From an uncultured Dyadobacter sp. (GTDB lineage: Bacteria; Bacteroidota; Bacteroidia; Cytophagales; Spirosomataceae), in the NCBI RefSeq assembly GCF_946482605.1, contig NZ_CAMLSE010000004.1, positions 310,001 through 374,000 of the forward strand: 64,000 bases of DNA, given 5' to 3'. The position numbers were made by a program, and so were the translations under genes. Positions 773 through 21,372 of this stretch are shown here, in pieces. The notes below the pieces were generated by a model. That model searched no databases and was not told the DNA's origin. It saw only the letters and a program-made list of their open reading frames with translations. Every line of letters begins with the position of its first letter. Positions within the stretch are counted from its first letter, which is position 1.

Positions 773-1816
773 ATGTATATTACAGATTCAGCCTGCATAT
801 CACCTCAGTCCACTTTTGACAATACCTTTTTTGAAGGTGGGATCAAGGTGCACGAAGGTGACAGGTATATTGCCATTGAGCCAGCCTACGGACAGATGAT
901 TCCCGCAGGTTTACTCCGGCGAATGGGAAAGGCCGTGCGAATGGGAGTAGGAGCAGGTTTACCCCTGATCCAAAAAGCAGGCGTCGAGGGCATTGTGCTG
1001 GGAACTGCGAACGGAGGACTTGAAGATTGCCTTAAATTCCTGAATCAGATCGTCGATTACAGCGAAGGTACGCTGACCCCAACCAATTTTGTTCAAAGTA
1101 CGCCTAATGCCGTAGCCGGTAACCTTGCATTGATGAGCAAAACAACCGGCTATAACACTACCCACGTGCATAAAGGGCTCGCTTTCGAGGCCGCATTGCT
1201 GGACGCGATGTTGTTGCTGGAAGAAAAGCGGGGGCAGACGTTCCTGGTCGGGAGCATTGAAGAGATATCAGATTATAACCATAATATCGACTTGCTTTCC
1301 GGAGCCTTCAAAACAGGTCATTTTACGTCGGAAAACTTGTTGACGATCGACTCACCGGGCTCTGCCAACGGGGAAGGGGCAGCAATGTTTATCGTCAACG
1401 CGGAGCGGTCAAACGATACGATTGCGCAGATCAGTGATGTTTTCCAGAGCAATAACCTGCTGGAAAGCGAGTTGGCACCCGTAGTCGAGGCATTTTTGAG
1501 CCGCAACAACCTGCAAGCTTCCGATATCGATGCAGTGATCATGGGAATTAGTGGAGATAACCGTTCGGATTACTGGTATTTCCGGCTGCAAGAGGCATTA
1601 TTCGGAGAAGCGAATTGCTACACCTACAAAAACATGGCAGGCGACTATCCCACGGGATCGGCATTCGCGACCTGGATGGGGGCGCAGGTAATAGCAGGTA
1701 AGCGTGTGCCCGACGCATGCGTGTGGATACAAAAAAACACCCGTGCTCCGAAGCATATCCTGATATATAATCATTATAAAGCTTCACAGCACGGGTTTAT
1801 ATTGCTGGGCGCCTGA
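773..1816 (+). CDS. Ketosynthase-like protein lacking the catalytic cysteine (Ketoacyl-synt_2 type)
   Basis: This 347-residue protein has a beta-ketoacyl synthase fold signature, but the nucleophile region reads TTHVHKG (residues 129-135), so valine stands where ketosynthases carry cysteine. It is a paralogue of the gene at 17488-18423: both share AGLLRRM, a PT-F-QST-N-AG block and GYN-TH followed by a similar helix. Proteins of this type occur in flexirubin and aryl-polyene clusters, where a chain-length-factor or scaffolding role is possible; that role is inferred. It starts 29 bases after glpD and ends one base from the convergent flavoprotein gene. It is the only rightward member on this side of the cluster. 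Confidence 0.75.
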   Translation: MYITDSACISPQSTFDNTFFEGGIKVHEGDRYIAIEPAYGQMIPAGLLRRMGKAVRMGVGAGLPLIQKAGVEGIVLGTANGGLEDCLKFLNQIVDYSEGTLTPTNFVQSTPNAVAGNLALMSKTTGYNTTHVHKGLAFEAALLDAMLLLEEKRGQTFLVGSIEEISDYNHNIDLLSGAFKTGHFTSENLLTIDSPGSANGEGAAMFIVNAERSNDTIAQISDVFQSNNLLESELAPVVEAFLSRNNLQASDIDAVIMGISGDNRSDYWYFRLQEALFGEANCYTYKNMAGDYPTGSAFATWMGAQVIAGKRVPDACVWIQKNTRAPKHILIYNHYKASQHGFILLGA

Positions 1817-1817
1817 A

Positions 1818-3065
1818 TCAGTTCAGGCCAGCTTCTTCCGCTTTCTCTTTCATTTTGATCACTTTCGCGAGCGTCGGCAGGATGGTATCGTGCTTTTTAA
1901 CGAACGGGTTGGATTGGTCCCAGACATAACCCGCAAGTACCGAGCAGATTTGCCTTTTGATATCCTCGTCAATGTGTTTTGCAAAGACAATAGTCTGGAA
2001 ATCACCTGAATACCAGCCGGAAACGTAGCTCCTGAATACATTGATACCCTGCTGGATCACTTCTTCATAATCCTTTTTCCAGTCGACCGCCTCGCCTTGC
2101 AGGTGCCGGTGCGTCATTTTCGCAGAAAGCAGGCCGGACGCCGTCGCGAAGGTCACGCCGGACGAGAAAATAGGGTCGAGAAATTCGGTGCTGTTGCCGG
2201 AAAGTACAAAACCTTCGCCGGACATTTTCGTCACGCCGATCGAATATCCCAGAATATGCCGCGGTTCGAATTTGAAAGTGGATTCGGCAAAACGGCCGCT
2301 CAGATCCTCGAAGCCACGGATAAACTCCTTGTACTTCTCGCCATTGTTTTCGGCCAGTTCCACGATCTTGTCCTTGTCACCCACAATGCCCACGGAAGTC
2401 GAGCCGTCCGAGAACGGGATGGCCCATATCCACGATTTATTGTTATCAAATGAATGCACAAAAATGTTGTTGCTCGCTTCTTCTGTGCGCTTTGTATCTT
2501 CTAAATGCGAGAACACCGCTCCGCGGGGTGTGAATGTCGACGGTTTACTCAAATCAAAAAGCCGGGGCAGCACGCGTCCGTAACCGCTTGAATCGATGAT
2601 GAACTTTGCTTCAATGCGCTGCGAATTACCCTGGGCATCCTTGTAATCGATGACCTGCTTTTCCGGGCCGCATTCCACGGCGGTAACCTCGCATTCAAAA
2701 TGGACGTCGACGCCTTTCGCCCGCGTGGCTTCTGCCAGTTTGTTGTCGAAATCCGCACGTTTCACCTGCCAGGTCCAGGTCCATCCCTGGGTAAACTGCT
2801 CCTCGAAAAAGAACTCGCAGCGTTTCTCACCGCGCATGAAGGCCGCGCCGGTCTTTTTCTGGAAATTCAATGGTTCGATCGCCTCACGCAGTCCGGATTC
2901 CGTTAAATGTTCCATACAGCACGGCAAAAGGCTTTCCCCGATCTGAAAACGGGGGAATTTTTCTTTTTCGAGGATCGTGACGTCGTAGCCCTGTTTCTTT
3001 AAATAAGAAGCTGCGACAGTTCCCGCAGGGCCGGCCCCGATGACCAGCACATCGACAGTTTGCAT
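1818..3065 (-). CDS. FAD-dependent halogenase-like oxidoreductase of the pigment cluster
   Basis: A 415-residue flavoprotein with an N-terminal dinucleotide fold (GAGPAGT at residues 11-17), the FPRFQIGESLLP segment and a later SWIWAIPFSDG segment. These are hallmarks of the tryptophan-halogenase/CmlS superfamily, whose signature is GWxWxIP; here the first glycine is serine. A lysine pair follows the GESLLP block (NFQKKTGA), where the family keeps a functional lysine. Known relatives chlorinate aromatic rings, and some flexirubins are chlorinated, so ring halogenation of the pigment is a reasonable inference. A non-halogenating monooxygenase or reductase cannot be excluded. It lies 2 bases after the desaturase gene in the same leftward operon. 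Confidence 0.8.
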   Translation of the reverse strand: MQTVDVLVIGAGPAGTVAASYLKKQGYDVTILEKEKFPRFQIGESLLPCCMEHLTESGLREAIEPLNFQKKTGAAFMRGEKRCEFFFEEQFTQGWTWTWQVKRADFDNKLAEATRAKGVDVHFECEVTAVECGPEKQVIDYKDAQGNSQRIEAKFIIDSSGYGRVLPRLFDLSKPSTFTPRGAVFSHLEDTKRTEEASNNIFVHSFDNNKSWIWAIPFSDGSTSVGIVGDKDKIVELAENNGEKYKEFIRGFEDLSGRFAESTFKFEPRHILGYSIGVTKMSGEGFVLSGNSTEFLDPIFSSGVTFATASGLLSAKMTHRHLQGEAVDWKKDYEEVIQQGINVFRSYVSGWYSGDFQTIVFAKHIDEDIKRQICSVLAGYVWDQSNPFVKKHDTILPTLAKVIKMKEKAEEAGLN

Positions 3066-3067
3066 AA

Positions 3068-4600
3068 TCAGGCGTTTTTTACTTTTTGGATGAGTTTATC
3101 TTTATCTACAAAGGAGAAGCACGTTATAAATGCACTAACGGTAACCCCTAAAATTCCGTGCAAGGATATATTCTGACCCGTCAGGTGCAGGTTGGGTATT
3201 TTGGTGCGCGTGTTGATCTGCGTTCGCGCCGGAGAATTGGAATCTTTGACAATGCCGTACATGGAGCCGTCGCGGTTACCGATGTAATCGCGGAATGTCA
3301 GTGGCGTCGCGCTGTGTACGGACTTAATTTTAGAGGAAATGCCGGGGAAGACGGTTTCCAGTTTGCGGATCACCCGTGCCTCCTTCTCTTTTTTGAAGTT
3401 CGCATAGGACTCGTCTCGCTTGCCAGGTTCGGCTACCGTACTGAACGTGTCGGCCCATTGAGCAGTTTCGGAGGCCTTCATGTAGGTCATAACCGACATG
3501 GAATCGGCATATTTCCCTTTTTTGGAAACAAAAGGTGTACAGATAAAATAGGTTTGAGGCCAGGTAGCCGCATCGTAATCGACACCTCCCCAGACGTCCT
3601 CGATATGGTGCTGATACACATTGTGGTTCAGGTATTCGAAACTGTTGTCCAGAAATGAAAGGTGTACGAGAAAAGTGGAAACGCTGTTTTCGAGCGTCTG
3701 TACCCGGTTTTTGTAAATATTCAGGAACCTTTCCGCCCCGAAAATGTCGATCGATACAGCGGGATGGACGTTGGAAATGAATTGCTTACCCCGGAAAGAT
3801 TCCCCGTTTTCGAGCACTACTTCCGCCACATGCCCCTTGTCGTCGTACCGGGCGGACACTACTTTTTTATGTTTGTAAATTTCCCCGCCATGCTTCCTTA
3901 CCGACCTGCTGAGCTGGATCGCGATCTGCGAGCCGCCGTCTATGAATTTGTAGGCCCCTGATAGGTAACTTTTCAGGATCAATGCATGGACGTAGAATGG
4001 CGTTTTGTCTTTGACGCCTGCATATAAAAGGTTGTTTCCTGCCAGCACATTGCGTAGGCGGACATTATCCGTGAGAGACGCAATATAATCGTATGCATTC
4101 AGCGCGAGGATATCCCCGTTGGTCTGATAACCCTCTCCGGAAACTTCCAGGTTGTACAATGGGAAGCGCTTACAGATTTCGACGATCTGCCTGCAATAGG
4201 TTTTGATCGCCTTTTCTTCATCTGGAAAATAGGAAACCAGCTTTCGCTCGAAATGTTCCATTCCCTGCGCATAGCCGTACTCGCAGCCATCCTCGAACCG
4301 GATCACATCGAACTGATCGTCGTCGAGACGCTTGATCTTTAGTTTATCGAGAATGCCGAAGTACTTAAAGAACTGATACAGGTTTTCCCCTTCATCGAGC
4401 CCCCCTACATAATGCACACCCGTATCGAAGATGCTTTTATCCCGGCTGTAAACCTGTAAATGTCCGCCGATCTGGTGGTTTTTTTCCAGTACTACCACAC
4501 TGAAACCTTCCATGGCAAGTATGTTGGCACAAGCCAGACCGCCCAGTCCGCTCCCAACAATCACAAAATCATATTCCTTTTGCACGGCGGAAGATTGCAT
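3068..4600 (-). CDS. CrtI-like FAD-dependent desaturase/isomerase (phytoene dehydrogenase family)
   Basis: A 510-residue amine-oxidoreductase-fold flavoprotein. The N terminus carries the FAD motif VGSGLGGLACA and the following VVVLEKNHQIGGH segment, and the C terminus has the HLTGQNISLHGILGV block typical of the CrtI, CrtH and retinol-saturase group. Members desaturate, isomerise or saturate conjugated polyenes. In a polyene pigment cluster a role in setting or isomerising the conjugated chain is a reasonable inference; the actual substrate cannot be read from sequence. It sits 32 bases downstream of the exporter fusion and 2 bases upstream of the halogenase-like gene, so the three are probably cotranscribed leftward. 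Confidence 0.85.
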   Translation of the reverse strand: MQSSAVQKEYDFVIVGSGLGGLACANILAMEGFSVVVLEKNHQIGGHLQVYSRDKSIFDTGVHYVGGLDEGENLYQFFKYFGILDKLKIKRLDDDQFDVIRFEDGCEYGYAQGMEHFERKLVSYFPDEEKAIKTYCRQIVEICKRFPLYNLEVSGEGYQTNGDILALNAYDYIASLTDNVRLRNVLAGNNLLYAGVKDKTPFYVHALILKSYLSGAYKFIDGGSQIAIQLSRSVRKHGGEIYKHKKVVSARYDDKGHVAEVVLENGESFRGKQFISNVHPAVSIDIFGAERFLNIYKNRVQTLENSVSTFLVHLSFLDNSFEYLNHNVYQHHIEDVWGGVDYDAATWPQTYFICTPFVSKKGKYADSMSVMTYMKASETAQWADTFSTVAEPGKRDESYANFKKEKEARVIRKLETVFPGISSKIKSVHSATPLTFRDYIGNRDGSMYGIVKDSNSPARTQINTRTKIPNLHLTGQNISLHGILGVTVSAFITCFSFVDKDKLIQKVKNA

Positions 4601-4632
4601 TTAAATGTCTAATGGAAAAATGATCGGTCGGG

Positions 4633-7600
4633 TTAGTTAGTAATCGGTGAAGGGGAGGAGTGTTGGGCTGGTTTGCGCAGGATGAACAGCACATTCGAGG
4701 TATTTTCGGAGTGTTCCTGCATTTCGTATCCCAATCCGTTCCGGGCGGCAAAATCCCGGATGTCCTGCGACGCGAAGAAATGGAATTCGTCCGTTTTTCG
4801 GTTGAAAGCGAATATGCCTGTCGACAATGCCTCTGTTTTCTGCGTGTTGCGATGTTTCGTGGTAAGGTCCGTAATGCCGTCGCGGATGAAAAGTATGCCG
4901 CCTGGTTGCAGCGCCGAAGCGCAACGGTCGAGTAAAATAAGCTGTTTTTCCCTGGATAAATAATGCAGGACATCATTTAAAAAAATGACATCCTGTGCGC
5001 CGGGATCAACGGCCATGATATCGTCGTACAAAAAGCGGAGGTTTCCGGTTTTATGATAGCTGTTTTCGGCAATCGCAATCTTCTCTTCGTCGTAATCGAT
5101 GCCGGTAATGAGCCGATCGGGGTTTTTGTAATGCAGGTAAAACGACAGGTAACCATAGCCGCAGCCTAAATCCAGGATTCGCTTCCGTGCACCGATCTGC
5201 GCATTATAGTAAGTGTAATTTTTGCTTTCCAGCCGCCATTTGACTTTGAAATACCATTCAAGTACGGGCCCTTTAAACACATAGTTAGTGAAAATCTTGT
5301 GTTTCAGATACCGGGTATCCTCCATTTCATCGCGGTAAGCTGCAAATTCCGCTTTGAAAAAGGCGGTGATCTGTTTGGTCTTGTCGCGTAATGTGGCACC
5401 CCATCGGGAATCGGAATAGTCGATGCGGGGCAGTACGCGAACATTCAGCGCGCCCGGGCGGATGAGAAAGTCGTTTTTAGGTAAAACATCGTGTGCGCCG
5501 TGCAGGAGGATGGGCTGAATATCGAGGCCAAGCTGCTCGGCCAGATAGAATGCACCCTTATGAAAACGCGCGATCGTGCCGTCCTGGGAGCGGGTGCCTT
5601 CCGGGAAGATGAGAACGGAATAGCCGTCGGCCACAAGTGCTCTTACCTTTTCAATGTTCTCCTCGGGACCGTCGTCGCTGTACACATAACCCGCGTAACG
5701 GATAATGGGCCCGAAAAAGGGTGATTTATAAACCCAGCCTTTGACCATCAGCACTATTTTCGGGTGCAGCATAATGGCGAGCAGGATGTCCAGGAACGAG
5801 GTGTGGTTGGCAATAAAGATGACCGGCTTGTTCATGTCCAGGTTTTCCAGGCCTGAGAAGTTCTTTTTCACATGCGGGCCGGAGTAGATAACCGTTTTGG
5901 CGTAGAAGGACAGAGAGTTATTGATGGCAGCCTTTTTCTTCTTTTTTGAAATCGGCATCAGCAGGATTGTCACCAGTTTCGAATGCAGGAAAAGGCAGCC
6001 TGATAAAAAATAGGTAAAGCTCGACACACTGATCAGGAACGGCAGCATCGTCACCGGGGCTTTTTTCTTGCCAATGCGTTTTTGTACAAAAAAATCAAAC
6101 AGTACCGGTTGGAAAACGAAGGAAATGAACAGGATACAGACGATACCAAGCACGCTGATCAGTGAAATGGAGTGAATGGCGGGGTGTTTTGCGAAGATGA
6201 GCACACCGGTACCGATGAGCGTGGTAGTGGCCGACAATGCGATCGCTGCCTGGTAAGAACGGAGCGAGTCTTTGCCCGACTTATACCTGCTGAGCAGGCC
6301 GTCGGTCACGAAAATGCTGAAATCGTCGCCGAGCCCGAAGATGAATGTGGTGACGATCACATTCACAAAGTTGAACTTGATGCCCAAAATGGCTGCAATG
6401 CCCAGGATCCAGATCCAGCTGATGACCATAGGCAAAAAGGACAGCAGCGTGAGTTCGATTCGGCCATACACGACCAGCAGCGTGAAGAAAACGATGGATG
6501 CTGAAATAAGCAGCAGGTAATTAAAATCGTCTTTGACCATTGTCAGCAATTCGCCGGCAAGTTCACCGCGGTCGAAGATTTCGAGGCCATGTATCTGCCG
6601 CAGCTCCCGCTTGACACCGGCCAGCTGCTCCTGGTTAAGGACGACGGTAGAAATGAAAGTCGTGCCCGAGGATTTAATGTCGATCAGGTTGTCGATGCCC
6701 AGTTCATTAAAAAGGGTGTCCAGCGACACGGTGGCGGGAGTGCGACCGGCGATCCAGCCCTTGAAATCGTTGAATGCGTAAGCATTGAATCCATTTTGAG
6801 CTGCGGATCGGTTGAGTATGCTAAACGTCGAATCTTTTTTGCCTTCTGTCCAGAAAGCCTGCCAGCGTTGCATTCGTTCCCGTTTCAGGTCCTGCGGTAT
6901 CAGCAGGGAACCGGACGAAACGAAGTTGTCGATGCGCCCGGAGTGCTGTAATGCGACTAATTTTTGATAGGCGTCGTAATTGATCTTTTCGGCTTTTGCC
7001 CGGCTTGGATCGGAGGCAAATACATAGATCCTTTTTTGTTTTCGCGGATCTATGCCCGTCAAAGCTTCCTCACGGCCGCTGAGTTCGGGATCCTGGATGC
7101 TGAGATTTTCGAACCCGGCATCGAACTCGGTATAGCGGGAAAAATACAGGAAGACGATCGTCAGTACGGCAATACCCGCAAGTGTGGCACCACGCCAGCG
7201 GTCGGGGATGGTGGGAATGCGGAATGCACTTTGTTCGCCGGGTATTTTTTGTATGTCAAAACGGGTGGATGCAAGGATGACCGGCAATGCGATGAGCGTA
7301 AACAATGCGGCGCCGAACAGGCTTAGCGAGGAGAACAGGCCGAAATCCTGCAAAACCACCGAGTTGGCGAAATGCAATGCACTGAATGCCATCACGGTGG
7401 TGAAACTGCCGGTGAGCAGTGGTCCGCTTACTTCCTTAATCGCAACCGGAATGGAATGGGTATGCCGCAGGTGCGTGAAAAAGTGGAATGCATAGTCGAG
7501 CAGAATGCCGAAGATCACGGCGCCGGTAGCCAGGGAAATGCCCGAGATCTCGGGACGGATGTACCCGGTGATGCCCAATGCGAAAATCGCCCCGAATATG

Positions 7601-8499
7601 CCGGGCAGGGTAATGTATATCGGAATGAGCAGCTTGCGGTAGTAGGCGATCAGCAATGCGAGAATCCCCGCCAGGGCAAGGAATGACGTGAAATAGGAAT
7701 CCTGCTTGACTTGTATGGCATTGCGGGCCGCGATCTCGAATGTGCCGAAATACGTGAATTGGTTGTACCGGTGCTGGCGGTTCCATTTGGCCCGGAACGA
7801 CTCCATAAGCTCAAAAAGTGCTACATTCTTATCCGAGCTGCCCGAATCGAAACTGGTGGATGCGAAAATGAGAATGCTTTTGCGGTCGGGCGTGAACATG
7901 ACACCGTCGTCCATGACCATTCCGTTGCTGTTGTTCACCGCGTTCAGCTCGCGGAAGTACTTGCCGGTGATACCCAGCGGATCGTTGAGTACAAACTGTT
8001 TGAGAAATGAGCCGCCAGGCGTGAGAAGCTGATTATAGGTGGCGGTTACCGAGGCCCGGATCGAATCGGAAGCAATGCGTGACCGGATGTGCCCGTAATA
8101 GGGCGCGTCGATCAGCTGCGGAAAATGGCTGTAAACATATTGGTATACATCCTCCTGCACATTGGGTCGTTCTGCCCGGATATTGCGGATGAAGCCGTTG
8201 GTGTATCGGCCGAGCGAGTCGGAGAAGCTCTCTGCTAGCTCCCGGGCATCATCGGTGCCGGTTTCGGCGGGTAAATCCAATGCCAAAACAACCTGGTTGA
8301 TGATGTTTTTACTTTCCACCAAACGGTTGAACTCTTCGAAGCTTTTACCTTTCGGTAAGGTGGCAAAAATACTTTCGGTTACTTTTAGCCGCGCAATTCC
8401 GGTCAGGAGGAAACTGACAATGACAAGCAGGCTAAGGAAAAACGCTGGTTTGTGACTGGAAAGGAATTTGTTTAGCCTTAAAAGTAAATCTCCTAGCAT
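4633..8499 (-). CDS. Tri-domain fusion: MMPL/RND-type exporter, PlsC-like acyltransferase, SAM methyltransferase
   Basis: A single 1288-residue frame encodes three parts. Residues 1 to about 800 form an MMPL/RND-type transporter with two blocks of clustered membrane segments and two large periplasmic loops. From about 860 to 1060 is a glycerolipid acyltransferase with the HX4D motif NHTSFLD (His near 899) and FPEGTRS. From about 1070 to 1260 is a class I methyltransferase with LDLGCGYGY (near 1106). Aryl-polyene clusters usually encode such functions as separate genes. Likely roles are membrane translocation of the finished polyene, esterification to an acceptor, and O- or C-methylation of the aryl head; these are inferred from context. 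A strong promoter-like element lies just upstream at 8525-8554 on the same strand. Confidence 0.85.
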   Translation of the reverse strand: MLGDLLLRLNKFLSSHKPAFFLSLLVIVSFLLTGIARLKVTESIFATLPKGKSFEEFNRLVESKNIINQVVLALDLPAETGTDDARELAESFSDSLGRYTNGFIRNIRAERPNVQEDVYQYVYSHFPQLIDAPYYGHIRSRIASDSIRASVTATYNQLLTPGGSFLKQFVLNDPLGITGKYFRELNAVNNSNGMVMDDGVMFTPDRKSILIFASTSFDSGSSDKNVALFELMESFRAKWNRQHRYNQFTYFGTFEIAARNAIQVKQDSYFTSFLALAGILALLIAYYRKLLIPIYITLPGIFGAIFALGITGYIRPEISGISLATGAVIFGILLDYAFHFFTHLRHTHSIPVAIKEVSGPLLTGSFTTVMAFSALHFANSVVLQDFGLFSSLSLFGAALFTLIALPVILASTRFDIQKIPGEQSAFRIPTIPDRWRGATLAGIAVLTIVFLYFSRYTEFDAGFENLSIQDPELSGREEALTGIDPRKQKRIYVFASDPSRAKAEKINYDAYQKLVALQHSGRIDNFVSSGSLLIPQDLKRERMQRWQAFWTEGKKDSTFSILNRSAAQNGFNAYAFNDFKGWIAGRTPATVSLDTLFNELGIDNLIDIKSSGTTFISTVVLNQEQLAGVKRELRQIHGLEIFDRGELAGELLTMVKDDFNYLLLISASIVFFTLLVVYGRIELTLLSFLPMVISWIWILGIAAILGIKFNFVNVIVTTFIFGLGDDFSIFVTDGLLSRYKSGKDSLRSYQAAIALSATTTLIGTGVLIFAKHPAIHSISLISVLGIVCILFISFVFQPVLFDFFVQKRIGKKKAPVTMLPFLISVSSFTYFLSGCLFLHSKLVTILLMPISKKKKKAAINNSLSFYAKTVIYSGPHVKKNFSGLENLDMNKPVIFIANHTSFLDILLAIMLHPKIVLMVKGWVYKSPFFGPIIRYAGYVYSDDGPEENIEKVRALVADGYSVLIFPEGTRSQDGTIARFHKGAFYLAEQLGLDIQPILLHGAHDVLPKNDFLIRPGALNVRVLPRIDYSDSRWGATLRDKTKQITAFFKAEFAAYRDEMEDTRYLKHKIFTNYVFKGPVLEWYFKVKWRLESKNYTYYNAQIGARKRILDLGCGYGYLSFYLHYKNPDRLITGIDYDEEKIAIAENSYHKTGNLRFLYDDIMAVDPGAQDVIFLNDVLHYLSREKQLILLDRCASALQPGGILFIRDGITDLTTKHRNTQKTEALSTGIFAFNRKTDEFHFFASQDIRDFAARNGLGYEMQEHSENTSNVLFILRKPAQHSSPSPITN

Positions 8500-8524
8500 T
8501 GGCAGGGGAAACGTGAATGTCCGA

Positions 8525-8554
8525 CAAAATTAATGAAATGTATCACTCAGGCAA
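8525..8554 (-). promoter_or_regulatory. Bacteroidota-type promoter for the exporter operon
   Basis: On the minus strand TAATTTTG (8525-8532) is a perfect match to the Bacteroidota -7 consensus TAnnTTTG. It is preceded after 18 bases by TTGC (8551-8554), close to the TTTG -33 element. Transcription would start near 8517, giving a short leader before the ATG at 8497-8499. Confidence 0.6.
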
Positions 8555-8586
8555 CTTCCGTGCCTGCCACCGCTGGCCGGTTCCTG

Positions 8587-8635: not shown

Positions 8636-8645
8636 CCATCTCTAA

Positions 8646-10175
8646 ATGAATCGTATTTCATTAGCTCAGATCGAGCAGTATGCTTTTGAAAAGAAGGAAT
8701 TTATCTTAGCCGAAGACGCCCTCCATCAAGTATCCCAATCCTTTGCTTTTTTAACTAACTTCTCCAAAGACAAAATCATATACGGGATCAATACCGGCTT
8801 TGGCCCTATGGCGCAATACCGGATCGAGACCGATCAGCTCAATAATCTGCAATACAACCTGATCCGCAGCCATTCGAGCGGGGTTGGGAAGCCGCTTAAT
8901 GAGGTATATGCGCGCAGTGTGATGCTTGCGCGCCTGAATTCTTTTTTACAGGCCAATTCCGGCGTCAGTACTGCGGTCATCAAACAGCTCGTATCGTTCC
9001 TCAATCAGGGCATTGTACCCGAGATCTTCGAACATGGCAGCGTGGGAGCGAGCGGCGACCTGGTACAGCTTTCGCATTTGGGCCTGAACCTGATCGGGGA
9101 GGGGCATGTGTACCAGCAGGGCTTGCGGCGGAAAACGGCGGAAGTGCTGGCTGAAAAGAACATCAAACCCCTGAAAATGGAGTTGCGCGATGGCCTGGGG
9201 TTGATCAACGGTACTTCCTGCATGACCGGGATGGCGGCGATCAACCTGATCTACGCCAAGCGACTCGTTCAATGGGCCATTGCTGCGTCGTCGATGCTGA
9301 ACGAGGCGATCGAGTCGTTCGACGATTCGTTTTCCAAACAGCTGAATGCCGTCAAGCACCACAAAGGTCAGCAGCAGATCGCTCAGCTTATGCGTGATTT
9401 TGTCGCTGGAAGTGGGCTGATCCGCAGCCGCGAAGAGCTTTTCCGCGATGACACGGCAATGCAAAAGACTGAATTTGAACGCAAAATACAGGAGTACTAT
9501 TCGATCCGCTGCGTGCCGCAGATCCTGGGGCCTGTCCTCGATACGATCCACTACGCGCAGGAAGTGGTTGAAAATGAGTTGAATTCGACGAATGACAACC
9601 CGATTGTCAGCCCGGACGACGATAATGTGTTCCATGGCGGCAATTTTCATGGGGATTACATTTCGCTGGAAATGGATAAGGTAAAACTGGTACTGACGAA
9701 GCTCACCATGCTGATGGAGCGCCAGCTCAACTTCCTGATGAACAGCAAGCTGAACGGGAAATTCCCGCCGTTCCTGAATGCAGGTACCTGGGGACTCAAC
9801 TTCGGCTTCCAGGGCGTGCAGTTTACGGCTACCTCTACCACGGCGGAAAGCCAGGCATTGTCGACGTCGGTTTATGTGCACAGCATTCCAAACAACAATG
9901 ACAACCAGGATATCGTCAGCATGGGTACCAACAGCGCGGTGATCGCCAAGCAGGTGCTTGAAAATGCTTTTCAGGTGATGGCTATCCACATCATGGCCAT
10001 TTGCCAGGCAATCGATTTGCTGCATCCTGAAGAAAAGGAGAAACTGTCGCCGAACGCGCAGTCCATTTACACACAGATCCGCCGGGAAGCCCATTTTGTG
10101 ACCGACGACGTGCCGCAGTCCGAAAGTATTGCAGCCGTTTTTGAATATATCAAAGAAACCCCATTCCATTTATGA
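8646..10175 (+). CDS. Aromatic amino acid ammonia-lyase (tyrosine/histidine ammonia-lyase family)
   Basis: A 509-residue member of the MIO-dependent ammonia-lyase family. The Ala-Ser-Gly triad that cyclises to the MIO prosthetic group is at residues 135-137 (GSVGASGDL), and the catalytic tyrosine loop YGINTGFG is at 46-53. Substrate-selectivity positions read Ser-His (75-76) as in histidine lyases, but no histidine-degradation genes flank it. Heading a polyene cluster, it most likely deaminates tyrosine to 4-coumarate, the aryl starter of flexirubins; this assignment is from context. Its stop overlaps the fabG-like start by 4 bases (ATGA), which implies translational coupling. Confidence 0.88.
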   Translation: MNRISLAQIEQYAFEKKEFILAEDALHQVSQSFAFLTNFSKDKIIYGINTGFGPMAQYRIETDQLNNLQYNLIRSHSSGVGKPLNEVYARSVMLARLNSFLQANSGVSTAVIKQLVSFLNQGIVPEIFEHGSVGASGDLVQLSHLGLNLIGEGHVYQQGLRRKTAEVLAEKNIKPLKMELRDGLGLINGTSCMTGMAAINLIYAKRLVQWAIAASSMLNEAIESFDDSFSKQLNAVKHHKGQQQIAQLMRDFVAGSGLIRSREELFRDDTAMQKTEFERKIQEYYSIRCVPQILGPVLDTIHYAQEVVENELNSTNDNPIVSPDDDNVFHGGNFHGDYISLEMDKVKLVLTKLTMLMERQLNFLMNSKLNGKFPPFLNAGTWGLNFGFQGVQFTATSTTAESQALSTSVYVHSIPNNNDNQDIVSMGTNSAVIAKQVLENAFQVMAIHIMAICQAIDLLHPEEKEKLSPNAQSIYTQIRREAHFVTDDVPQSESIAAVFEYIKETPFHL

Positions 10176-10903
10176 ATTGTGCATTGGTAACCGGTGCGTC
10201 CAGAGGACTTGGCAGGGCCATTGCGGTTCAGTTGGCCAAAGACCATGGTTTGTATGTATTGATCAACTACGCGTCCAACCTGGCTGCTGCGGAAGAAACC
10301 CTGGCGGAAATCCGGGCAGCGGGAGGTGATGGAGAGGTGCTGCATTTCAATGTCCAGCATAAAGCGGAGGTGGATGAGGCACTGAACGGCTGGCGGGAAA
10401 AGAATGAAGACAAATTCATCAGTGTTCTGGTGAATAATGCGGGCATTACCCGGGACGGATTGTTCATGTGGATGCCCGAAAAGGACTGGGACGATGTGCT
10501 GAACATTTCGGCGAAAGGTCTTTTCAACGTCACCCAGAATGCCATCCAGCAAATGTTGCGCAAGCGCACGGGCCGGATCGTCAATATCGCCTCGGTATCC
10601 GGGGTGAAAGGCGTGGCGGGCCAGGCGAATTATTCGGCTGCCAAAGGAGCGGTCATCGCCGCTACCAAATCGCTGGCGCAGGAAGTTGCCAAACGGAAGA
10701 TCACGGTCAATGCAGTAGCGCCCGGTTTCATCACCAGCGATATGACCAAGGATCTGAACGAGGACGAATTGAAACAAATGATACCGATGAACCGTTTTGG
10801 CAAAGCGGAGGAGGTTGCTCATCTCGTGAGCTTCCTGGTTTCCGATAAAGCTGCGTACATTACAGGCGAAGTAATCAATATCAACGGAGGAATTTACTCA
10901 TAA
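10172..10903 (+). CDS. 3-oxoacyl-ACP reductase, FabG-like SDR
   Basis: A 243-residue short-chain dehydrogenase. It shows the NADPH-binding motif TGASRGLG (residues 7-14), NNAG (88-91), the active-site serine in IASVSG (Ser141) and YSAAK (Tyr154, Lys158). The family reduces 3-oxoacyl-ACP to 3-hydroxyacyl-ACP. Here it would perform the single reduction of each polyene extension cycle. It is coupled by a 4-base overlap to the ammonia-lyase and lies 3 bases before a ketosynthase. Confidence 0.92.
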   Translation: MNCALVTGASRGLGRAIAVQLAKDHGLYVLINYASNLAAAEETLAEIRAAGGDGEVLHFNVQHKAEVDEALNGWREKNEDKFISVLVNNAGITRDGLFMWMPEKDWDDVLNISAKGLFNVTQNAIQQMLRKRTGRIVNIASVSGVKGVAGQANYSAAKGAVIAATKSLAQEVAKRKITVNAVAPGFITSDMTKDLNEDELKQMIPMNRFGKAEEVAHLVSFLVSDKAAYITGEVININGGIYS

Positions 10904-10906
10904 TCC

Positions 10907-12124: not shown

Positions 12125-12160
12125 AACCCGGAAGTCAAACAACTTCTACTTCTTCGTGAA

Positions 12161-12320: not shown

Positions 12321-12346
12321 TAGCCATGTATGCTAACGATGTTAAA

Positions 12347-12592
12347 ATGAGTTTGGAAGAAGTTATTGAAGAGACCAGAGACTTTTTGTCTGAGGAATTT
12401 GAGGTGGACCGGGATTTGATTCTTCCTGAAAATAGTCTGAAAGACACTTTGGATCTGGACAGTCTCGACTACGTCGATCTGGTTGTGCTGATCGATGAAA
12501 ACCTTAATATCAAGCTCACAGGAGAAGATTTTAAAGATATCGTAACCTTCGGTGATTTTTATCAGCTTGTCGGTAAGAAACTTGCATTATAA
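12347..12592 (+). CDS. Acyl carrier protein (first of two in the cluster)
   Basis: A small acidic carrier of 81 residues from the ATG at 12347. An upstream in-frame ATG at 12326 would add seven residues but sits at the predicted transcription start. The phosphopantetheine attachment motif is LDLDSLDYVDL with Ser39. It would carry the aryl starter and the growing polyene as a thioester. It lies 2 bases before an acyltransferase gene and probably begins the second, long rightward operon. Confidence 0.9.
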   Translation: MSLEEVIEETRDFLSEEFEVDRDLILPENSLKDTLDLDSLDYVDLVVLIDENLNIKLTGEDFKDIVTFGDFYQLVGKKLAL

Positions 12593-12594
12593 GA

Positions 12595-13880: not shown

Positions 13881-13886
13881 CCCCTA

Positions 13887-14312
13887 ATGACTGATTGCAT
13901 GATTTCTTCCGAAATAGATATAGACATCCGATTCAGCGAAACCGATGCCATGGGCGTGGTATGGCACGGCAACTATCTGAAATTTTTTGAGGACGGCAGG
14001 GAGGCATTCGGGAAAGAATTTGGATTGGAATACCTCGATATCCATGCCAAAGGCTTTGTAACACCGATCGTGAAATCGGAGATCGATCATAAAGCGCCCG
14101 TTTATTACGGGCAGGTCATCAAAGTCATCACCAGATATATCCCTACCAAGTCGGCAAAGATCCAGTTCGAATACGAGGTGATCAACATCACCACCGGGCA
14201 GCTTTGTGCCACGGGCAAAACCATGCAGGTATTCCTGGACCGTGATTCACGCGAGCTGGAACTGATCTCGCCGGATTTTTACAAGGAATGGAAAGCGCAG
14301 TACGACCTATGA
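13887..14312 (+). CDS. Acyl-CoA/ACP thioesterase, 4-hydroxybenzoyl-CoA thioesterase family
   Basis: A 141-residue hotdog protein with the 4HBT signature FSETDAMGVVWHGNYLKFFE, in which the aspartate after Glu-Thr is the usual catalytic residue. A second ATG at 13902 is also possible. The enzyme would hydrolyse acyl thioesters, perhaps releasing the finished or stalled polyene from the ACP. Its stop overlaps the next ketosynthase start by 4 bases (ATGA). Confidence 0.85.
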   Translation: MTDCMISSEIDIDIRFSETDAMGVVWHGNYLKFFEDGREAFGKEFGLEYLDIHAKGFVTPIVKSEIDHKAPVYYGQVIKVITRYIPTKSAKIQFEYEVINITTGQLCATGKTMQVFLDRDSRELELISPDFYKEWKAQYDL

Positions 14313-16014: not shown

Positions 16015-16037
16015 CAGACGCTCAATTAATCAGTAAT

Positions 16038-16298
16038 ATGGATAGTTTAAAACAGGATCTTAAAAAACAGATTATCGAACAGCTCAACCTGGAAGACCTT
16101 TCGGTGGAGGACATCGCGGACGACGCGCTGCTTTTCAACGACCAGGGCCTCGGGCTGGATTCGATCGATGCGCTCGAACTGATCGTGCTGCTCGAAAAAT
16201 ACCACGGCATCCAGCTTACCAACCCGGAAGAGGGCAAGGAGGCATTCAAGTCCATCAACACCATGGCGGAGTACATTCACAAAAGAAAAGCAGCTTAA
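16038..16298 (+). CDS. Acyl carrier protein (second)
   Basis: An 86-residue carrier with the attachment motif GLGLDSIDALEL (Ser42). It differs from the first carrier, which has Asp-Ser-Leu, so the two may load different acyl groups, for example starter and extender. It lies 23 bases after the Cys-less protein and 12 bases before a full-length ketosynthase. Confidence 0.92.
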   Translation: MDSLKQDLKKQIIEQLNLEDLSVEDIADDALLFNDQGLGLDSIDALELIVLLEKYHGIQLTNPEEGKEAFKSINTMAEYIHKRKAA

Positions 16299-16310
16299 CC
16301 ACCACACCGA

Positions 16311-17495: not shown

Positions 17496-18423
17496 ACCCG
17501 CATTGTACCTATCGGCGGCATCTACGATATCGCACCAGCCTACCTTCGGCAATCCGGGTTTTGCATCGGCGTTGGGGCCTGTTGACGCTTCCTCTGTATT
17601 GATCAGTCCGGATTACAAGGCATTTATCGACGCAGGGCTGCTTCGCCGGATGAGCAAGATCCTGAGAATGTCGGTAGCATGTGCCAAAGATTGCATTGCG
17701 CAGGCCGGTATCGAACAGCCGGATGCGATCGTGGTCGGGACGGGCCTGGGCTGTTTGCAGGATACGGAAAAATTTCTGAACACATCGCTCTCCGTTGAAG
17801 GGCTGCTTCCGCCGACTTCCTTTATCCAATCGACGCACAATACCATGGCCGGGCAAATCTCGCTGAGCATCGGCAACCACGGCTACAATATGACACATAC
17901 GCAGAATACGCTTTCATTTGAACACGCGTTGTTCGACGCGTCCATGCTCCTGCGCGAGGGCGACCGCCACGTGCTCGTGGGCGCGGCGGATGAGCATATC
18001 GACATTTTGGAAGATATAGCGGGACGGCTTGGTTTTGCCGCAGCGGCTCCGCTTACTTCCGGTGCCTCGTTTTTTATACTTTCCAATGAAAATGCGGGTC
18101 ATGCGACTGCCGAGCTGGCCGATGTTCATACCAGTGCAGGCGCGGATGAAGGTCAGGAAGAAATCGATGCGTTTCTGGATCGGAATGGATTGCAGGCAAC
18201 TGATATCGATCTGGCCTTGTATACGGGCGTTCCTGTGCAGGGCGCGGCGCGCAACCTGGATTACCTGTCGTTAGCCGGCATTTATCCAACGGCTTCTGCA
18301 TTTGCATTGCATTATGCGGTGGACTTGCTCGGCGTGGATAGGAGTGTAAGGAATGTGTTGATTTGTAATTCATTAAGAAAATGTAATCTGGGATTAACCC
18401 TACTGAAAGCCGTTGAAGCATAA
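17488..18423 (+). CDS. Ketosynthase-like protein lacking the catalytic cysteine (Ketoacyl-synt_2 type)
   Basis: A 311-residue paralogue of the protein at 773-1816. The nucleophile region reads MTHTQNT, with threonine near residue 138 in place of cysteine. Shared landmarks are AGLLRRM, VVGTGLG, PPTSFIQST and GYNMTH. The 8-base overlap with the active ketosynthase before it argues for a heterodimer in which this subunit sets chain length or binds the ACP; that function is inferred. It also overlaps the deacetylase gene that follows. Confidence 0.75.
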   Translation: MSKPALYLSAASTISHQPTFGNPGFASALGPVDASSVLISPDYKAFIDAGLLRRMSKILRMSVACAKDCIAQAGIEQPDAIVVGTGLGCLQDTEKFLNTSLSVEGLLPPTSFIQSTHNTMAGQISLSIGNHGYNMTHTQNTLSFEHALFDASMLLREGDRHVLVGAADEHIDILEDIAGRLGFAAAAPLTSGASFFILSNENAGHATAELADVHTSAGADEGQEEIDAFLDRNGLQATDIDLALYTGVPVQGAARNLDYLSLAGIYPTASAFALHYAVDLLGVDRSVRNVLICNSLRKCNLGLTLLKAVEA

Positions 18424-19198
18424 TCTCCTGATATTTTTTTGCATTACGGCGGCGGCGCTGAGTTCCATTATTTTTTGGGAAACTGATTATTTATGGCTTG
18501 TGCTGGGCGGTATTGCTTTGCTTTTTATAGGTGTAACAGCTTATGGATCAGCTCAGATACAGGTCAATTACTTTGTAAAATCCATGAACAGAGGCGGACG
18601 GCGTCCCGGAAAAGTCAAAGCCATTGCGCTCACATTCGACGACGGCCCCGATCCTGATTCGACACCCCGCATTCTCGACACGTTACTCGAAAACGACCTG
18701 AAAGCAACCTTTTTCGTGATCGGGAAAAAGGCGGTGAGCCATCCGGACCTGCTGCGCCGGATCGTGGAAGAAGGTCATACTATCGCGAACCATTCGTACA
18801 GCCATCATTACCTCATAGCCCTGTTTTCCACCCAAAAGCTCCGTGCGGATATCCAACGGTGCAATGAGGCGATCCGTGACATTACCGGGCACTTCCCGGT
18901 GTTTTTCAGGCCCCCATTTGGCGTGACAAACCCGCGTTATGCCACCGTTTTGAAGGATTTGCAGATGCAATCCATCGGTTGGTCGCTCCGGAGCATGGAT
19001 ACCCGCGCGAAGAACAAGTACCAGCTCATCAACACCATTATTTCAAAATTAAAGCCCAAAGACATCGTTCTGCTTCACGACCATCTGCCGCTCACTGCCG
19101 ACACACTGCCGGACATAATCGGGCACTGCCGCGAAATGGGCATTAAAATAGAACCACTCCCTCGACTGATCGGAAAGGAACCTTATGAGAAGCATTAG
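18413..19198 (+). CDS. Membrane-anchored polysaccharide deacetylase (NodB domain)
   Basis: A 261-residue protein. A TTG start at 18413 is chosen because it keeps two hydrophobic segments (about residues 4-22 and 28-46) ahead of the catalytic domain; no ATG precedes them. The carbohydrate esterase family 4 motifs are present: TFDDGPD (Asp76, Asp77), HSYSH (His127, His131) and RPPFG. Such enzymes remove N- or O-acyl groups from sugars outside the cytoplasm. Its place inside the pigment operon, with overlaps on both sides, suggests it acts on the sugar or lipid to which the pigment is attached, or on a protecting acyl group. Confidence 0.88.
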   Translation: MKHNLLIFFCITAAALSSIIFWETDYLWLVLGGIALLFIGVTAYGSAQIQVNYFVKSMNRGGRRPGKVKAIALTFDDGPDPDSTPRILDTLLENDLKATFFVIGKKAVSHPDLLRRIVEEGHTIANHSYSHHYLIALFSTQKLRADIQRCNEAIRDITGHFPVFFRPPFGVTNPRYATVLKDLQMQSIGWSLRSMDTRAKNKYQLINTIISKLKPKDIVLLHDHLPLTADTLPDIIGHCREMGIKIEPLPRLIGKEPYEKH

Positions 19199-19817
19199 AA
19201 TATTAGCGATGTTGGCCGTTTTAATGACAGCCAGTTTTGCACACGCTCAGTCATTTAAGCCGGTGGCTAATCCTGAAAAGGTGCTTGCCGAACTGCGGAA
19301 GATTTCGCAGGCCACAACGTCCATTCAGGCGTCGTTTACAGATGAGAAATACCTGGCTGTGCTGAAAGATCCCGAAAAATCGTCGGGTCTGTTCTACTAC
19401 CAGCAAAAAGATAAAATGCGCTGGGAGCAGCGGACGCCTTCGAAATACGTTATCCTGATCAACGGCGATAAACTGCGTATCCAGGAAGGGGGCAAAGAAA
19501 AGAATGTCGGGCAGGCGGGCCGTATGGCTGCGCAGATTAAGGAACTGATGATCGGGCTCGTGAATGGCGATTTTCAGCAGAACAAGGGGTTTTCATTGGC
19601 CGTATCGGAGGACAGCGACGACTACCAGATTGTGTTGACGCCGGAGAACCGCCGTTTGAAAAATATTTACTCCAAAATAGCGATGATCTTCTCCAAAAGC
19701 TCCCTGCGTTTGCGAGAACTGTCGTTTTTTGAGAAAGGCGGCGACAAAAGCATTATGAAGTTTCAGCAGGAGAAATTCAACCAGCCGATCGCCGAAAATC
19801 TATTTAAAGACTTATGA
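19185..19817 (+). CDS. LolA-like periplasmic carrier protein
   Basis: A 210-residue protein with a signal peptide (residues 1-22, ending AHAQS) and a LolA-type beta-sheet pattern: a TSIQASF segment early, then SGLFYYQQKDKMRWE and VILINGDKLRIQ. LolA proteins ferry lipoproteins through the periplasm, and LolA-like proteins recur in aryl-polyene clusters with MMPL exporters. It may carry the lipidated pigment between the exporter fusion and the outer membrane; that cargo is inferred. It overlaps the deacetylase by 14 bases and the dehydratase by 4. Confidence 0.85.
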   Translation: MRSIRILAMLAVLMTASFAHAQSFKPVANPEKVLAELRKISQATTSIQASFTDEKYLAVLKDPEKSSGLFYYQQKDKMRWEQRTPSKYVILINGDKLRIQEGGKEKNVGQAGRMAAQIKELMIGLVNGDFQQNKGFSLAVSEDSDDYQIVLTPENRRLKNIYSKIAMIFSKSSLRLRELSFFEKGGDKSIMKFQQEKFNQPIAENLFKDL

Positions 19818-20188
19818 TTCCCAAGCCTTTGAGCAATCTTTATACGATTATAGCCCTGGATCATGGCCCGGCCGAGATTACCAGTACAGTGTGGATCGAT
19901 CCCGCGCATCCGGTATTCGAGGGGCATTTTCCCGGCTCACCGGTGCTCCCGGGTGTTGTTCAGCTGGAAATGATAAAGGCGATACTCTCAAAGGCATTCG
20001 GAAAAGAAATAGCATTAAAGGAAATGAGCACCTGCAAATTCCTGGAAGTGCTTAACCCGGCCGAAACGCCGGAACTGACGATCCATATTCAATATAAAGG
20101 CGATGAAGTGCTTGATGTAAGCGCTTCGGGAAAGCGGGGTGAAAAGACCTATTTCAAAGTAAGGGCCAGTTTCCGTTCGATCGTTTAA
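19814..20188 (+). CDS. 3-hydroxyacyl-ACP dehydratase, FabZ-like
   Basis: A 124-residue hotdog protein with the FabZ signature FEGHFPGSPVLPGVVQLEM. The catalytic histidine and the glutamate 14 residues later are both kept. It is the second dehydratase-type protein in the cluster, with the one at 13461, so one may serve early cycles on the aryl starter and the other later cycles. It overlaps the LolA-like gene by 4 bases. Confidence 0.87.
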   Translation: MIPKPLSNLYTIIALDHGPAEITSTVWIDPAHPVFEGHFPGSPVLPGVVQLEMIKAILSKAFGKEIALKEMSTCKFLEVLNPAETPELTIHIQYKGDEVLDVSASGKRGEKTYFKVRASFRSIV

Positions 20189-20208
20189 ACCCGACATTTA
20201 AAAACAAA

Positions 20209-21372
20209 ATGACCCTCTCGGACATTCAATGCTGCGTGATCATTCCCACTTACAACAACCGCAACACATTGCGGCGGGTGATCGACGGTGTTTTACAGTA
20301 TGCGACCGTGCAGGAGATTATTGTCGTGAATGACGGATCTACGGACGATACGGTCACGATCCTCGCCGGTTATGGCGCGAGAATCCGGGTGTTGGATAAT
20401 GTGGTGAACAAAGGGAAAGGGTTTTCGCTCCGAAAGGCATTTGCCGAGGCGATACGCTTGGGTTTTGAAAACGCCATTACTATCGATTCCGACGGCCAGC
20501 ACTTGCCTTCCGACATTCCGCTTTTTATAGAAGCGGCGATCCAAAACCCGGGCGCATTGCTCATGGGGTCGCGGAACATGGAGCAGGAGGGAGTGCCGGG
20601 GAAGAGTTCTTTCGGGAACAAGTTTTCCAATTTCTGGTTCAAATTCGAGACGGGACTTACCTTGCCAGATACACAAACCGGCTTTCGCCTTTATCCGCTC
20701 GAACCGCTAAGGAAAATCAGTCTTTTTACGACCAAATTCGAGACGGAGATCGAAGTGATCGTAAAAATGGCCTGGAAAGATGTGCCTATCGTGCCGATCA
20801 ACATCCAGGTAATCTACGACAAGGACGAGCGTGTGACGCATTTCCGGCCATTCCGGGACTTTACCCGCATCAGCATTCTCAATACCTGGCTGGTAACGCT
20901 CACCCTGCTTTACTACCTTCCCAAACGCCTTTTCAGGTACATACATAAGAAGGGATTGTGGAAGATCATCCGGGATGAGGCCGTCAAGTCCGATGAAAGT
21001 AATTTCAATAAGGCGAAGTCACTCGGCTTCGGTTTTTTTATGGGTATCGTCCCGATCTGGGGATTTCAGCTGCTCGTGGGCATTCCGCTATCAGTGTATT
21101 TTCGGATGAATAAGGTATTGTTCCTCACAGCGGCAAACATCAGTATTCCGCCTATGATCCCTTTCATCATCTTCGCAAGTTACCGTTTCGGAGGGCTGTT
21201 TTACAGGAATGGCGTGCAGCTGACGTCTGCCAAAAACCTGACCTTTGAATCCATTCATGTCAACTTTGTACAATATTTTTTGGGTGGAACGCTACTGGCA
21301 CTTGTGGCTGGGGCGATCGGTTTTGTCGTTAGTTTCCTGCTTTTCTCCTTGCTCCGTCCCAGGAGGGGCTAG
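20209..21372 (+). CDS. Glycosyltransferase family 2 fused to a DUF2062 membrane domain
   Basis: A 387-residue protein. Residues 8 to about 235 are a GT-A fold glycosyltransferase (IIPTYNN, VVNDGSTDD, DSDGQH). From about 260 to the end is a DUF2062 membrane domain with several hydrophobic helices and a GIVPIWGFQ segment. GT2 proteins of this kind are regular members of aryl-polyene clusters. Glycosylation of the anchor or pigment on the cytoplasmic face is likely, with an unknown sugar. It is the last gene of the rightward operon. Confidence 0.88.
   Translation: MTLSDIQCCVIIPTYNNRNTLRRVIDGVLQYATVQEIIVVNDGSTDDTVTILAGYGARIRVLDNVVNKGKGFSLRKAFAEAIRLGFENAITIDSDGQHLPSDIPLFIEAAIQNPGALLMGSRNMEQEGVPGKSSFGNKFSNFWFKFETGLTLPDTQTGFRLYPLEPLRKISLFTTKFETEIEVIVKMAWKDVPIVPINIQVIYDKDERVTHFRPFRDFTRISILNTWLVTLTLLYYLPKRLFRYIHKKGLWKIIRDEAVKSDESNFNKAKSLGFGFFMGIVPIWGFQLLVGIPLSVYFRMNKVLFLTAANISIPPMIPFIIFASYRFGGLFYRNGVQLTSAKNLTFESIHVNFVQYFLGGTLLALVAGAIGFVVSFLLFSLLRPRRG

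What the first reader, a model, noticed from the sequence alone, without database searches (positions are those of the whole stretch)
773..21372. Polyene pigment cluster with three active and three Cys-less ketosynthase-type proteins
Seen: three ketosynthases keep the Cys-His-His triad (10907, 14309, 16311) and three ketosynthase-like proteins lack the cysteine (773, 15388, 17488). Two active/inactive pairs overlap by 4 and 8 bases. Known: aryl-polyene systems use a ketosynthase with a chain-length-factor partner. Inference: the cluster may use up to three distinct ketosynthase-type heterodimers, which could make a composite or unusual polyene.
Basis: partly seen in the sequence, partly recalled or inferred. 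Interest (0 to 1): 0.7.

Follow-up and report, generated by a model that had tools for sequence, protein, structure and literature searches.

The report
Flexirubin pigment cluster, relocated partner gene
This is a Dyadobacter gene cluster for the yellow pigment flexirubin; its three inactive ketosynthase-like proteins look like helper subunits, and one of them appears to serve an enzyme encoded elsewhere in the genome that builds the other half of the pigment.

Summary
Three ketosynthases (10907, 14309, 16311) keep Cys-His-His; 773, 15388 and 17488 lack the cysteine; the overlaps are 4 and 8 bases. 773 and 17488 match the chain length factor ApeC by sequence; 15388 resembles ketosynthases only by predicted fold. 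The cluster is a flexirubin (flx) cluster of Dyadobacter type. Such clusters with several ketosynthases were published in 2014, so an unusual polyene is not supported.

The new point concerns 773. Its relatives elsewhere mostly lie directly behind one ketosynthase, DarJ, of the dialkylresorcinol (dar) genes. In Dyadobacter DarJ stays in the dar operon while 773 sits unlinked beside the flx genes. Of 29 Dyadobacter genomes the same 27 carry both, never adjacent. The two lacking both (D. flavalbus, D. sediminis; probably one event) lost a dar block at one locus and 773 at another, yet keep the other ketosynthase genes and FlxY.

I infer two polyene heterodimers (14309/15388, 16311/17488), an ApeR-like enzyme (10907), and a third heterodimer, DarJ/773, encoded at two loci, for the resorcinol half. 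The pairing is well supported by genomics; physical interaction and chemistry are untested.

The parts
773..1816 (+). CLF773: full-length Cys-less ketosynthase homologue (347 aa), inferred chain length factor of the dar-operon ketosynthase DarJ encoded elsewhere
1818..3065 (-). flavin-dependent oxidoreductase, possible halogenase
   Evidence: PF04820 81.3 bits; CmlS model 182 bits, below its cut-off of 900
3068..4600 (-). CrtI/carotenoid-isomerase-like FAD protein
   Evidence: PF01593; below NCBIfam cut-offs
4633..8499 (-). MMPL exporter - acyltransferase - methyltransferase fusion
   Evidence: PF03176, PF01553, PF13649 in one ORF
8646..10175 (+). FlxA tyrosine ammonia-lyase
   Evidence: NF053541 805.2 bits, cut-off 700
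10172..10903 (+). ketoreductase (FlxB-like)
   Evidence: PF13561/PF00106
10907..12124 (+). KS10907: active FabB/ApeR-like ketosynthase
   Evidence: catalytic residues; best PDB hits synthase I (FabB) type; groups with E. coli ApeR 100/98
12326..12592 (+). acyl carrier protein 1
   Evidence: PF00550
12595..13461 (+). LpxL-like acyltransferase
   Evidence: PF03279
13461..13880 (+). putative dehydratase (from position and size only)
   Evidence: no Pfam or NCBIfam hit; conserved in place
13887..14312 (+). 4HBT thioesterase
   Evidence: PF13279
14309..15391 (+). KS14309: active ketosynthase, best PDB match ApeO
   Evidence: 6qsp_A E 4.8e-34; catalytic residues
15388..16014 (+). half-size Cys-less protein (208 aa), inferred CLF of KS14309
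   Evidence: KS fold by prediction only; overlaps the KS gene in 34 of 34 loci that hold both
16038..16298 (+). acyl carrier protein 2
   Evidence: PF00550
16311..17495 (+). KS16311: active ketosynthase
   Evidence: PF00109/PF02801; catalytic residues
17488..18423 (+). CLF17488: Cys-less ketosynthase homologue (311 aa), inferred CLF of KS16311
   Evidence: PF13723; 6qsp_B E 8.1e-5; next to its KS in 33 of 33 loci holding both
18413..19198 (+). polysaccharide deacetylase
   Evidence: PF01522
19185..19817 (+). LolA-like carrier
   Evidence: PF03548
19814..20188 (+). FabA/ApeI-like dehydratase
   Evidence: PF07977 over its cut-off, PF22818 below it
20209..21372 (+). GT2-like glycosyltransferase
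   Evidence: NCBIfam hits, all below cut-off

Best explanation
The window holds the polyene (flx) part of a Dyadobacter flexirubin pathway. FlxA makes 4-coumarate; KS14309/15388 and KS16311/17488 act as KS-CLF heterodimers and KS10907 as an ApeR-like ketosynthase to build the aryl polyene on the two ACPs, with KR, dehydratases, thioesterase and export genes. The third Cys-less protein, 773, does not pair with any ketosynthase in the window. It is the chain length factor of DarJ, the ketosynthase at the end of the unlinked dar operon (darA, B, D, E, F, I, C, J), and the two meet in trans. DarJ/773, with the dedicated carrier protein DarC, most likely supplies a beta-ketoacyl-ACP of set length to DarB for the dialkylresorcinol half of the ester. 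Shown here: gene content, catalytic residues, clade-level pairing of KS and CLF genes, co-occurrence, co-loss. Inferred: physical heterodimers, the trans assembly, and every reaction.
For: FlxA model 805 bits over a cut-off of 700. In G006 a 773 relative follows DarJ with a 34-base overlap behind the other dar genes. In a draw of 198 genomes DarJ-type KSs occur in 11. 10 of these also have a 773-type CLF; in the 11th (G191) the DarJ gene runs to the contig's end where the CLF would lie. DarJ and CLF are adjacent in 8 of the 10, split in the Dyadobacter G001 and in G072. KSs in front of 773-type CLFs form one group with Dyadobacter and G072 DarJ (12 rows, 100/96). No PF13723 protein from a genome without DarJ fell in the 773 clade. 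Dyadobacter: 773 in 27 of 29, DarJ in the same 27, never adjacent. D. flavalbus and D. sediminis lack DarB, DarJ and 773, with clean sites at both loci, but keep FlxY, KS10907, KS14309, 15388, KS16311 and 17488. 773 is under purifying selection (dN/dS 0.049 and 0.038 in the two comparisons that gave a ratio, dS being high).
Against: The window's own genome is not held, so its DarJ is inferred from relatives. The co-loss is probably one evolutionary event. DarB (E <= 1e-60) occurs in 41 of 198 genomes and 30 of these have no DarJ-type KS; heterologous expression of darA and darB gave the resorcinol (PMC3992019). So DarJ/773 is not required for that chemistry in general. A distance-correlation test in 26 Dyadobacter genomes does not single out DarJ for 773 (partial r 0.34 with DarJ, 0.35 with KS10907, 0.47 with CLF17488). 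In 6 of the 8 adjacent cases (G168, G130, G015, G097, G161, G060) the pair lies on another contig than DarB. The 773 clade has 94/80 support, and assignment rests on the trees: of 36 CLF rows outside that clade, 22 score higher with the 773-type profile than with the 17488-type one (the 773 profile includes one Gillisia row). The step from DarJ-type (367 bits, G137) to the next KS (364 bits) is small; the tree draws the line.
Confidence: 0.7

Rival explanations
1. All three Cys-less proteins serve polyene assembly: 773 pairs with KS10907 or another in-window ketosynthase, giving three polyene heterodimers.
For: 773 lies beside the flx genes in the 27 Dyadobacter loci that hold it. Distance correlation does not exclude KS10907.
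Against: KS10907 resembles FabB and groups with ApeR. 773 is absent from two species that keep the flx ketosynthases. Its relatives elsewhere mostly lie behind DarJ.
Confidence: 0.12
2. DarJ/773 does not make a C-C bond but joins the two halves: it moves the polyene acyl group from its carrier protein onto the resorcinol hydroxyl, as some ketosynthase homologues form C-O bonds in nonactin biosynthesis (recalled).
For: The link to dar genes and the loss together with them fit equally well.
Against: The dar operon also encodes a BtrH-like protein (DarE) and its locus a C45-family acyltransferase-like protein, more usual candidates for acyl transfer. DarJ keeps the ordinary Cys-His-Lys-His set.
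Confidence: 0.15
3. 15388 is not a ketosynthase derivative but an unrelated accessory protein of KS14309.
For: No sequence match to a Pfam or NCBIfam family or a relevant PDB chain. Profile-profile score against 17488 is nil and against 773 weak (E 0.0036, probability 9%).
Against: The predicted fold matches ketosynthases and chain length factors in all 50 rows shown by Foldseek (of 759 at E <= 10) and over residues 1-208 in VIA. Its size and gene position fit the half-size ApeC (PMC8358021, passages).
Confidence: 0.1
4. 773 is a relic of the former darJ-CLF operon with no remaining function.
For: It was separated from its KS in Dyadobacter.
Against: Present and open in 27 of 29 Dyadobacter genomes, with dN/dS 0.049 and 0.038 in the two comparisons that gave a ratio.
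Confidence: 0.04

Closest known systems
flx/dar flexirubin gene clusters of Chitinophaga pinensis and Flavobacterium johnsoniae (PMC3992019)
   Same: FlxA-type lyase, several ketosynthases, reductase, dehydratases, deacetylase, LolA, glycosyltransferase, exporter; separate dar genes as in C. pinensis
   Different: In Dyadobacter the CLF that matches DarJ lies with the flx genes, and FlxY lies in the dar locus. The published gene table (supplement) was not readable here, so gene-by-gene equivalence to FlxI/L/N/O is not established.
ApeO-ApeC KS-CLF heterodimer and ApeR of aryl polyene clusters (PMC8358021, PMC8253772; PDB 6QSP)
   Same: Active KS with a Cys-less partner, a half-size CLF (15388), and an extra FabB/ApeR-like KS
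   Different: Three Cys-less partners of three kinds; two are larger (311 and 347 aa); one is encoded away from its presumed KS
dar cluster of Azoarcus sp. BH72 (PMC3949708, Table 1)
   Same: Order darA-B-D-E-F-(G-H)-I-C-J-K equals darA-B-D-E-F-I-C-J-CLF in G006 (gene names there given by similarity and position); darJ is listed as a ketosynthase
   Different: darK is listed only as a hypothetical protein; its sequence was not seen here, so equating it with 773 rests on position

Membership tests
flexirubin biosynthesis cluster | FlxA tyrosine ammonia-lyase | tested here: met
   NF053541 805.2 bits, cut-off 700
flexirubin biosynthesis cluster | type II KS/KR/DH/ACP set with conserved order | tested here: met
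   order shared with relatives
flexirubin biosynthesis cluster | dialkylresorcinol genes darA/darB in the genome | tested here: inconclusive
   Own genome not held; DarB in 26 of 29 Dyadobacter genomes, at another locus
flexirubin biosynthesis cluster | coumarate ligase FlxY | not tested
   The window was not scanned as a whole for it; it is in the dar locus of G001 (629 bits, cut-off 520)
flexirubin biosynthesis cluster | flexirubin product | not testable with these tools
   A KOH test was positive for Dyadobacter sp. HH091 in print (PMC9606717, passages)
KS-CLF heterodimer (ApeO-ApeC type), pair 16311/17488 | active KS plus adjacent Cys-less homologue | tested here: met
   ApeC match E 8.1e-5
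KS-CLF heterodimer (ApeO-ApeC type), pair 14309/15388 | Cys-less partner is a ketosynthase homologue | tested here: inconclusive
   fold yes, sequence no
KS-CLF heterodimer (ApeO-ApeC type), pair DarJ/773 | KS and CLF encoded next to each other (usual, not strictly defining) | tested here: not met
   adjacent in 0 of 27 Dyadobacter genomes holding both; adjacent in 8 of the 10 genomes holding both in the 198-genome draw
KS-CLF heterodimer (ApeO-ApeC type), all pairs | physical complex | not testable with these tools
   the structure tool takes single chains only
ApeR/FabB-like ketosynthase | 10907 groups with ApeR | tested here: met
   100/98, ApeR on a long branch; best PDB hits synthase I type

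The most novel reading that the evidence does not exclude
A type II polyketide heterodimer is assembled from subunits encoded at two unlinked loci, each beside the genes for a different half of the same molecule: DarJ from the dar operon and its chain length factor 773 from the flx cluster. Three kinds of KS-CLF pair then share the making of one ester pigment, and the relocated CLF could tie the resorcinol half to expression of the polyene half.
Probability: 0.55. Interest if true: 0.55.

Novelty: new variant of a known kind. Interest (0 to 1): 0.45.

Why it matters
It gives a partner and a pathway half to an orphan gene that a cluster-by-cluster reading would place in the polyene pathway, and it suggests that a KS and its chain length factor can drift apart in the genome and still be kept, and lost, together. 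It makes testable why flexirubin producers carry several ketosynthase/CLF sets: one or more for each half of the molecule. It also flags D. flavalbus and D. sediminis as natural strains without darB and darJ.

Tried and rejected
Distance correlation (mirror-tree) among 26 Dyadobacter genomes: uninformative, all raw correlations are 0.86-0.93. Simple 773-DarB co-occurrence in the class sample: weak as evidence, since 32 of the 35 genomes with any PF13723 protein carry DarB at E <= 1e-60. Profile-profile comparison of 15388 with 17488 and 773: not significant or weak; a PDB search with its profile hit nothing relevant. The published C. pinensis gene table is in a supplement that could not be read. 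Considered and rejected: 10907 as partner of 773; 773 as a relic; an unusual polyene product; the 8-base overlap as a sign of coupling, as it is not conserved. A first guess that 773 was specific to Dyadobacter was dropped. Rows dropped or missing: one duplicate CLF row in the CLF tree, which also lacks G001's own 773 gene (window, L002 and L025 stand for Dyadobacter) and G060's CLF (missed by the PF13723 search, found); two upstream KS rows, one a duplicate and one of G120, left out of the KS tree; G191's DarJ is in no tree; five CLF places gave no upstream KS.
Full report

What the cluster is. FlxA at 8646-10175 scores 805 bits against a flexirubin-specific model with cut-off 700. A scan of the GTDB contigs with FlxA gave 38 loci, 29 of them Dyadobacter. 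The gene order is shared by Dyadobacter and several uncultured Bacteroidota loci (which lists 18 of the 38). 15388 was recovered in 34 of 38 loci and overlaps its ketosynthase in all 34. The four without it are L020 and L030, whose DNA ends early, and L027 and L028, where other DNA follows KS10907. The window's own genome is not held; kinship to Dyadobacter rests on up to 95% identity of FlxA.

Known background. The C. pinensis cluster was described in 2014 with five putative ketosynthases, FlxC, FlxI, FlxL, FlxN and FlxO (PMC3992019; passages, section 4 part 1). In aryl polyene clusters ApeO pairs with the half-size, one-domain chain length factor ApeC, and ApeR is a FabB-like homodimer (PMC8358021, passages; PMC8253772, passages). 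So an active/inactive pair and an extra ketosynthase are expected. In my tree KS10907 groups with E. coli ApeR (100/98), while KS14309 groups with ApeO only weakly (89/61); both E. coli rows sit on long branches.

Where 773 belongs. Each of four Dyadobacter genomes searched has exactly two PF13723 proteins, relatives of 17488 and of 773; Gillisia has one and no DarB over the cut-off. In G006, a MAG labelled C. pinensis, the 773 relative follows a fourth active ketosynthase, which lies behind an ACP gene and darA, darB and neighbours (DarB by its NCBIfam model, the others by similarity and position). In Dyadobacter the same operon ends with that ketosynthase and no chain length factor follows (L053, L054; L151, L152). 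The order matches darA-B-D-E-F-(G-H)-I-C-J-K of Azoarcus, where darJ is a ketosynthase and darK a hypothetical protein (PMC3949708, passages of Table 1). I therefore call the ketosynthase DarJ. That 773 equals DarK is inference from position.

Pairing across the class. In a draw of 198 genomes DarB (E <= 1e-60) occurs in 41, in 30 over the curated cut-off; PF13723 (E <= 1e-6) in 35 with 45 places; FlxA over its cut-off in 34; DarJ-type ketosynthases (367 bits or more) in 11. All 11 have DarB at E <= 1e-60, 10 of them over the cut-off. Ten of the 11 have a 773-type chain length factor; in G191 the DarJ gene runs to the end of its contig. DarJ and CLF are adjacent in 8 of these 10 and split in G001 (Dyadobacter) and G072. 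Ketosynthases in front of 773-type CLFs form one group with Dyadobacter and G072 DarJ (12 rows, 100/96, 100% of 200 bootstrap trees, unrooted); those in front of the other CLFs lie outside it. G072 groups with G201 in both the KS and the CLF tree, so its split looks independent of the one in Dyadobacter. Limits: the 773 clade has 94/80 support; 22 of the 36 CLF rows outside it score higher with the 773-type profile than with the 17488-type profile, so the assignment rests on the trees; five CLF places gave no upstream KS; the bit-score step at the DarJ limit is small (367 to 364). DarJ lies within 5 kb of DarB in G001, G201, G072 and G137, but on a different contig in G168, G130, G015, G097, G161, G191 and G060. 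In 30 of the 41 DarB genomes there is no DarJ-type KS.

The Dyadobacter test. In 29 Dyadobacter genomes 773 is present in 27 and DarJ, at E <= 1e-100, in the same 27. They are never adjacent: 23 on different contigs, 4 on one contig at 34 kb or more. DarB is present in 26; besides the two discussed next it is missing from G220, where DarJ starts 2.6 kb from its contig's start and DarB, usually about 5 kb upstream, would lie beyond it. D. flavalbus (G221) and D. sediminis (G222) lack DarB, DarJ and 773 at these thresholds. At the dar locus both keep FlxY, the C45-type acyltransferase-like gene and a DUF218 gene; the block from the methyltransferase through darA to darJ (and one further small gene) is gone with no tblastn match at E <= 1e-3 within the 20-kb stretch fetched. 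darA and darC-I were not searched in the rest of these two genomes. At the flx locus the glycerol-3-phosphate-dehydrogenase-like gene is followed after 120-129 bases by the oxidoreductase gene, with no 773 remnant above chance (matches near the site no better than E 1.6). Both species keep KS10907, KS14309, 15388, KS16311 and 17488. Two unlinked deletions with one functional theme are best explained if 773 worked with the dar genes, DarJ being the ketosynthase of the CLF-bearing type among them. The two species probably share one event, so this is a single natural experiment.

Selection and coevolution. dN/dS of 773 between the window and two relatives is 0.049 and 0.038 (dS 1.8 and 2.3, so rough); for the other five KS/CLF genes the ratios that could be computed lie between 0.027 and 0.189; some pairs were saturated and gave none. 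Distance correlation among 26 genomes does not single out any partner, which neither supports nor refutes the pairing.

Mechanism. Most likely the in-window pairs elongate the coumaroyl starter to the aryl polyene, with KS10907 helping, as reported for ApeR beside ApeO-ApeC. DarJ/773 with DarC most likely prepares a beta-ketoacyl-ACP for DarB. Against necessity: heterologous expression of darA and darB gave the resorcinol (PMC3992019), and many DarB genomes have no DarJ. The pair may therefore set chain length or flux rather than enable the reaction. Ester formation by DarJ/773 remains possible.

Print status. Among the titles listed and passages read I saw no paper that assigns a chain length factor to DarJ or reports this split; the library is open-access only and I did not read the listed papers in full. 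The only other paper holding 'darJ' with 'dialkylresorcinol' is PMC11767558 (listing only). PMC9606717 (passages) reports dar and flx genes and a positive KOH test in Dyadobacter sp. HH091. PMC10734526 (passages) reports genus-specific flexirubin cluster types. PMC11573002 (passages) describes the genus as flexirubin-producing; the passages gave no pigment result for D. flavalbus or D. sediminis.

Noticed in passing
L021/L149 (D. flavalbus) and L022/L150 (D. sediminis): Two Dyadobacter species have lost the darA-J block but keep the polyene genes and FlxY; they should make a polyene without dialkylresorcinol.
   Followed up: yes
window 1818-3065 (-): Flavin oxidoreductase with CmlS/tryptophan-halogenase similarity and a WIWAIP stretch resembling a halogenase motif (motif recalled); could point to a halogenated flexirubin.
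   Followed up: partly
window 4633-8499 (-): MMPL exporter, acyltransferase and methyltransferase fused in one 1288-aa protein; matched over 98% or more of its length in 16 of the 18 loci listed (65% in L028, no match listed in L036).
   Followed up: partly
L054:15007-16299 (-): The coumarate ligase FlxY lies in the dar locus of Dyadobacter, so genes for the two pigment halves are mixed between the two loci.
   Followed up: partly
L138 (G072 C1:174000-185000): A second, apparently independent separation of a 773-type gene from its darJ.
   Followed up: partly
L033/L051 (CAMDNE010000003.1): A 3.5-Mb MAG labelled Chitinophaga pinensis whose flx proteins group with those of an uncultured Flavobacteriales MAG (L031) in the trees; the label looks wrong.
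   Followed up: no
window 57027-60625 (+): Three tandem similar ORFs of about 380 aa, each starting with a signal-peptide-like stretch (by eye).
   Followed up: no
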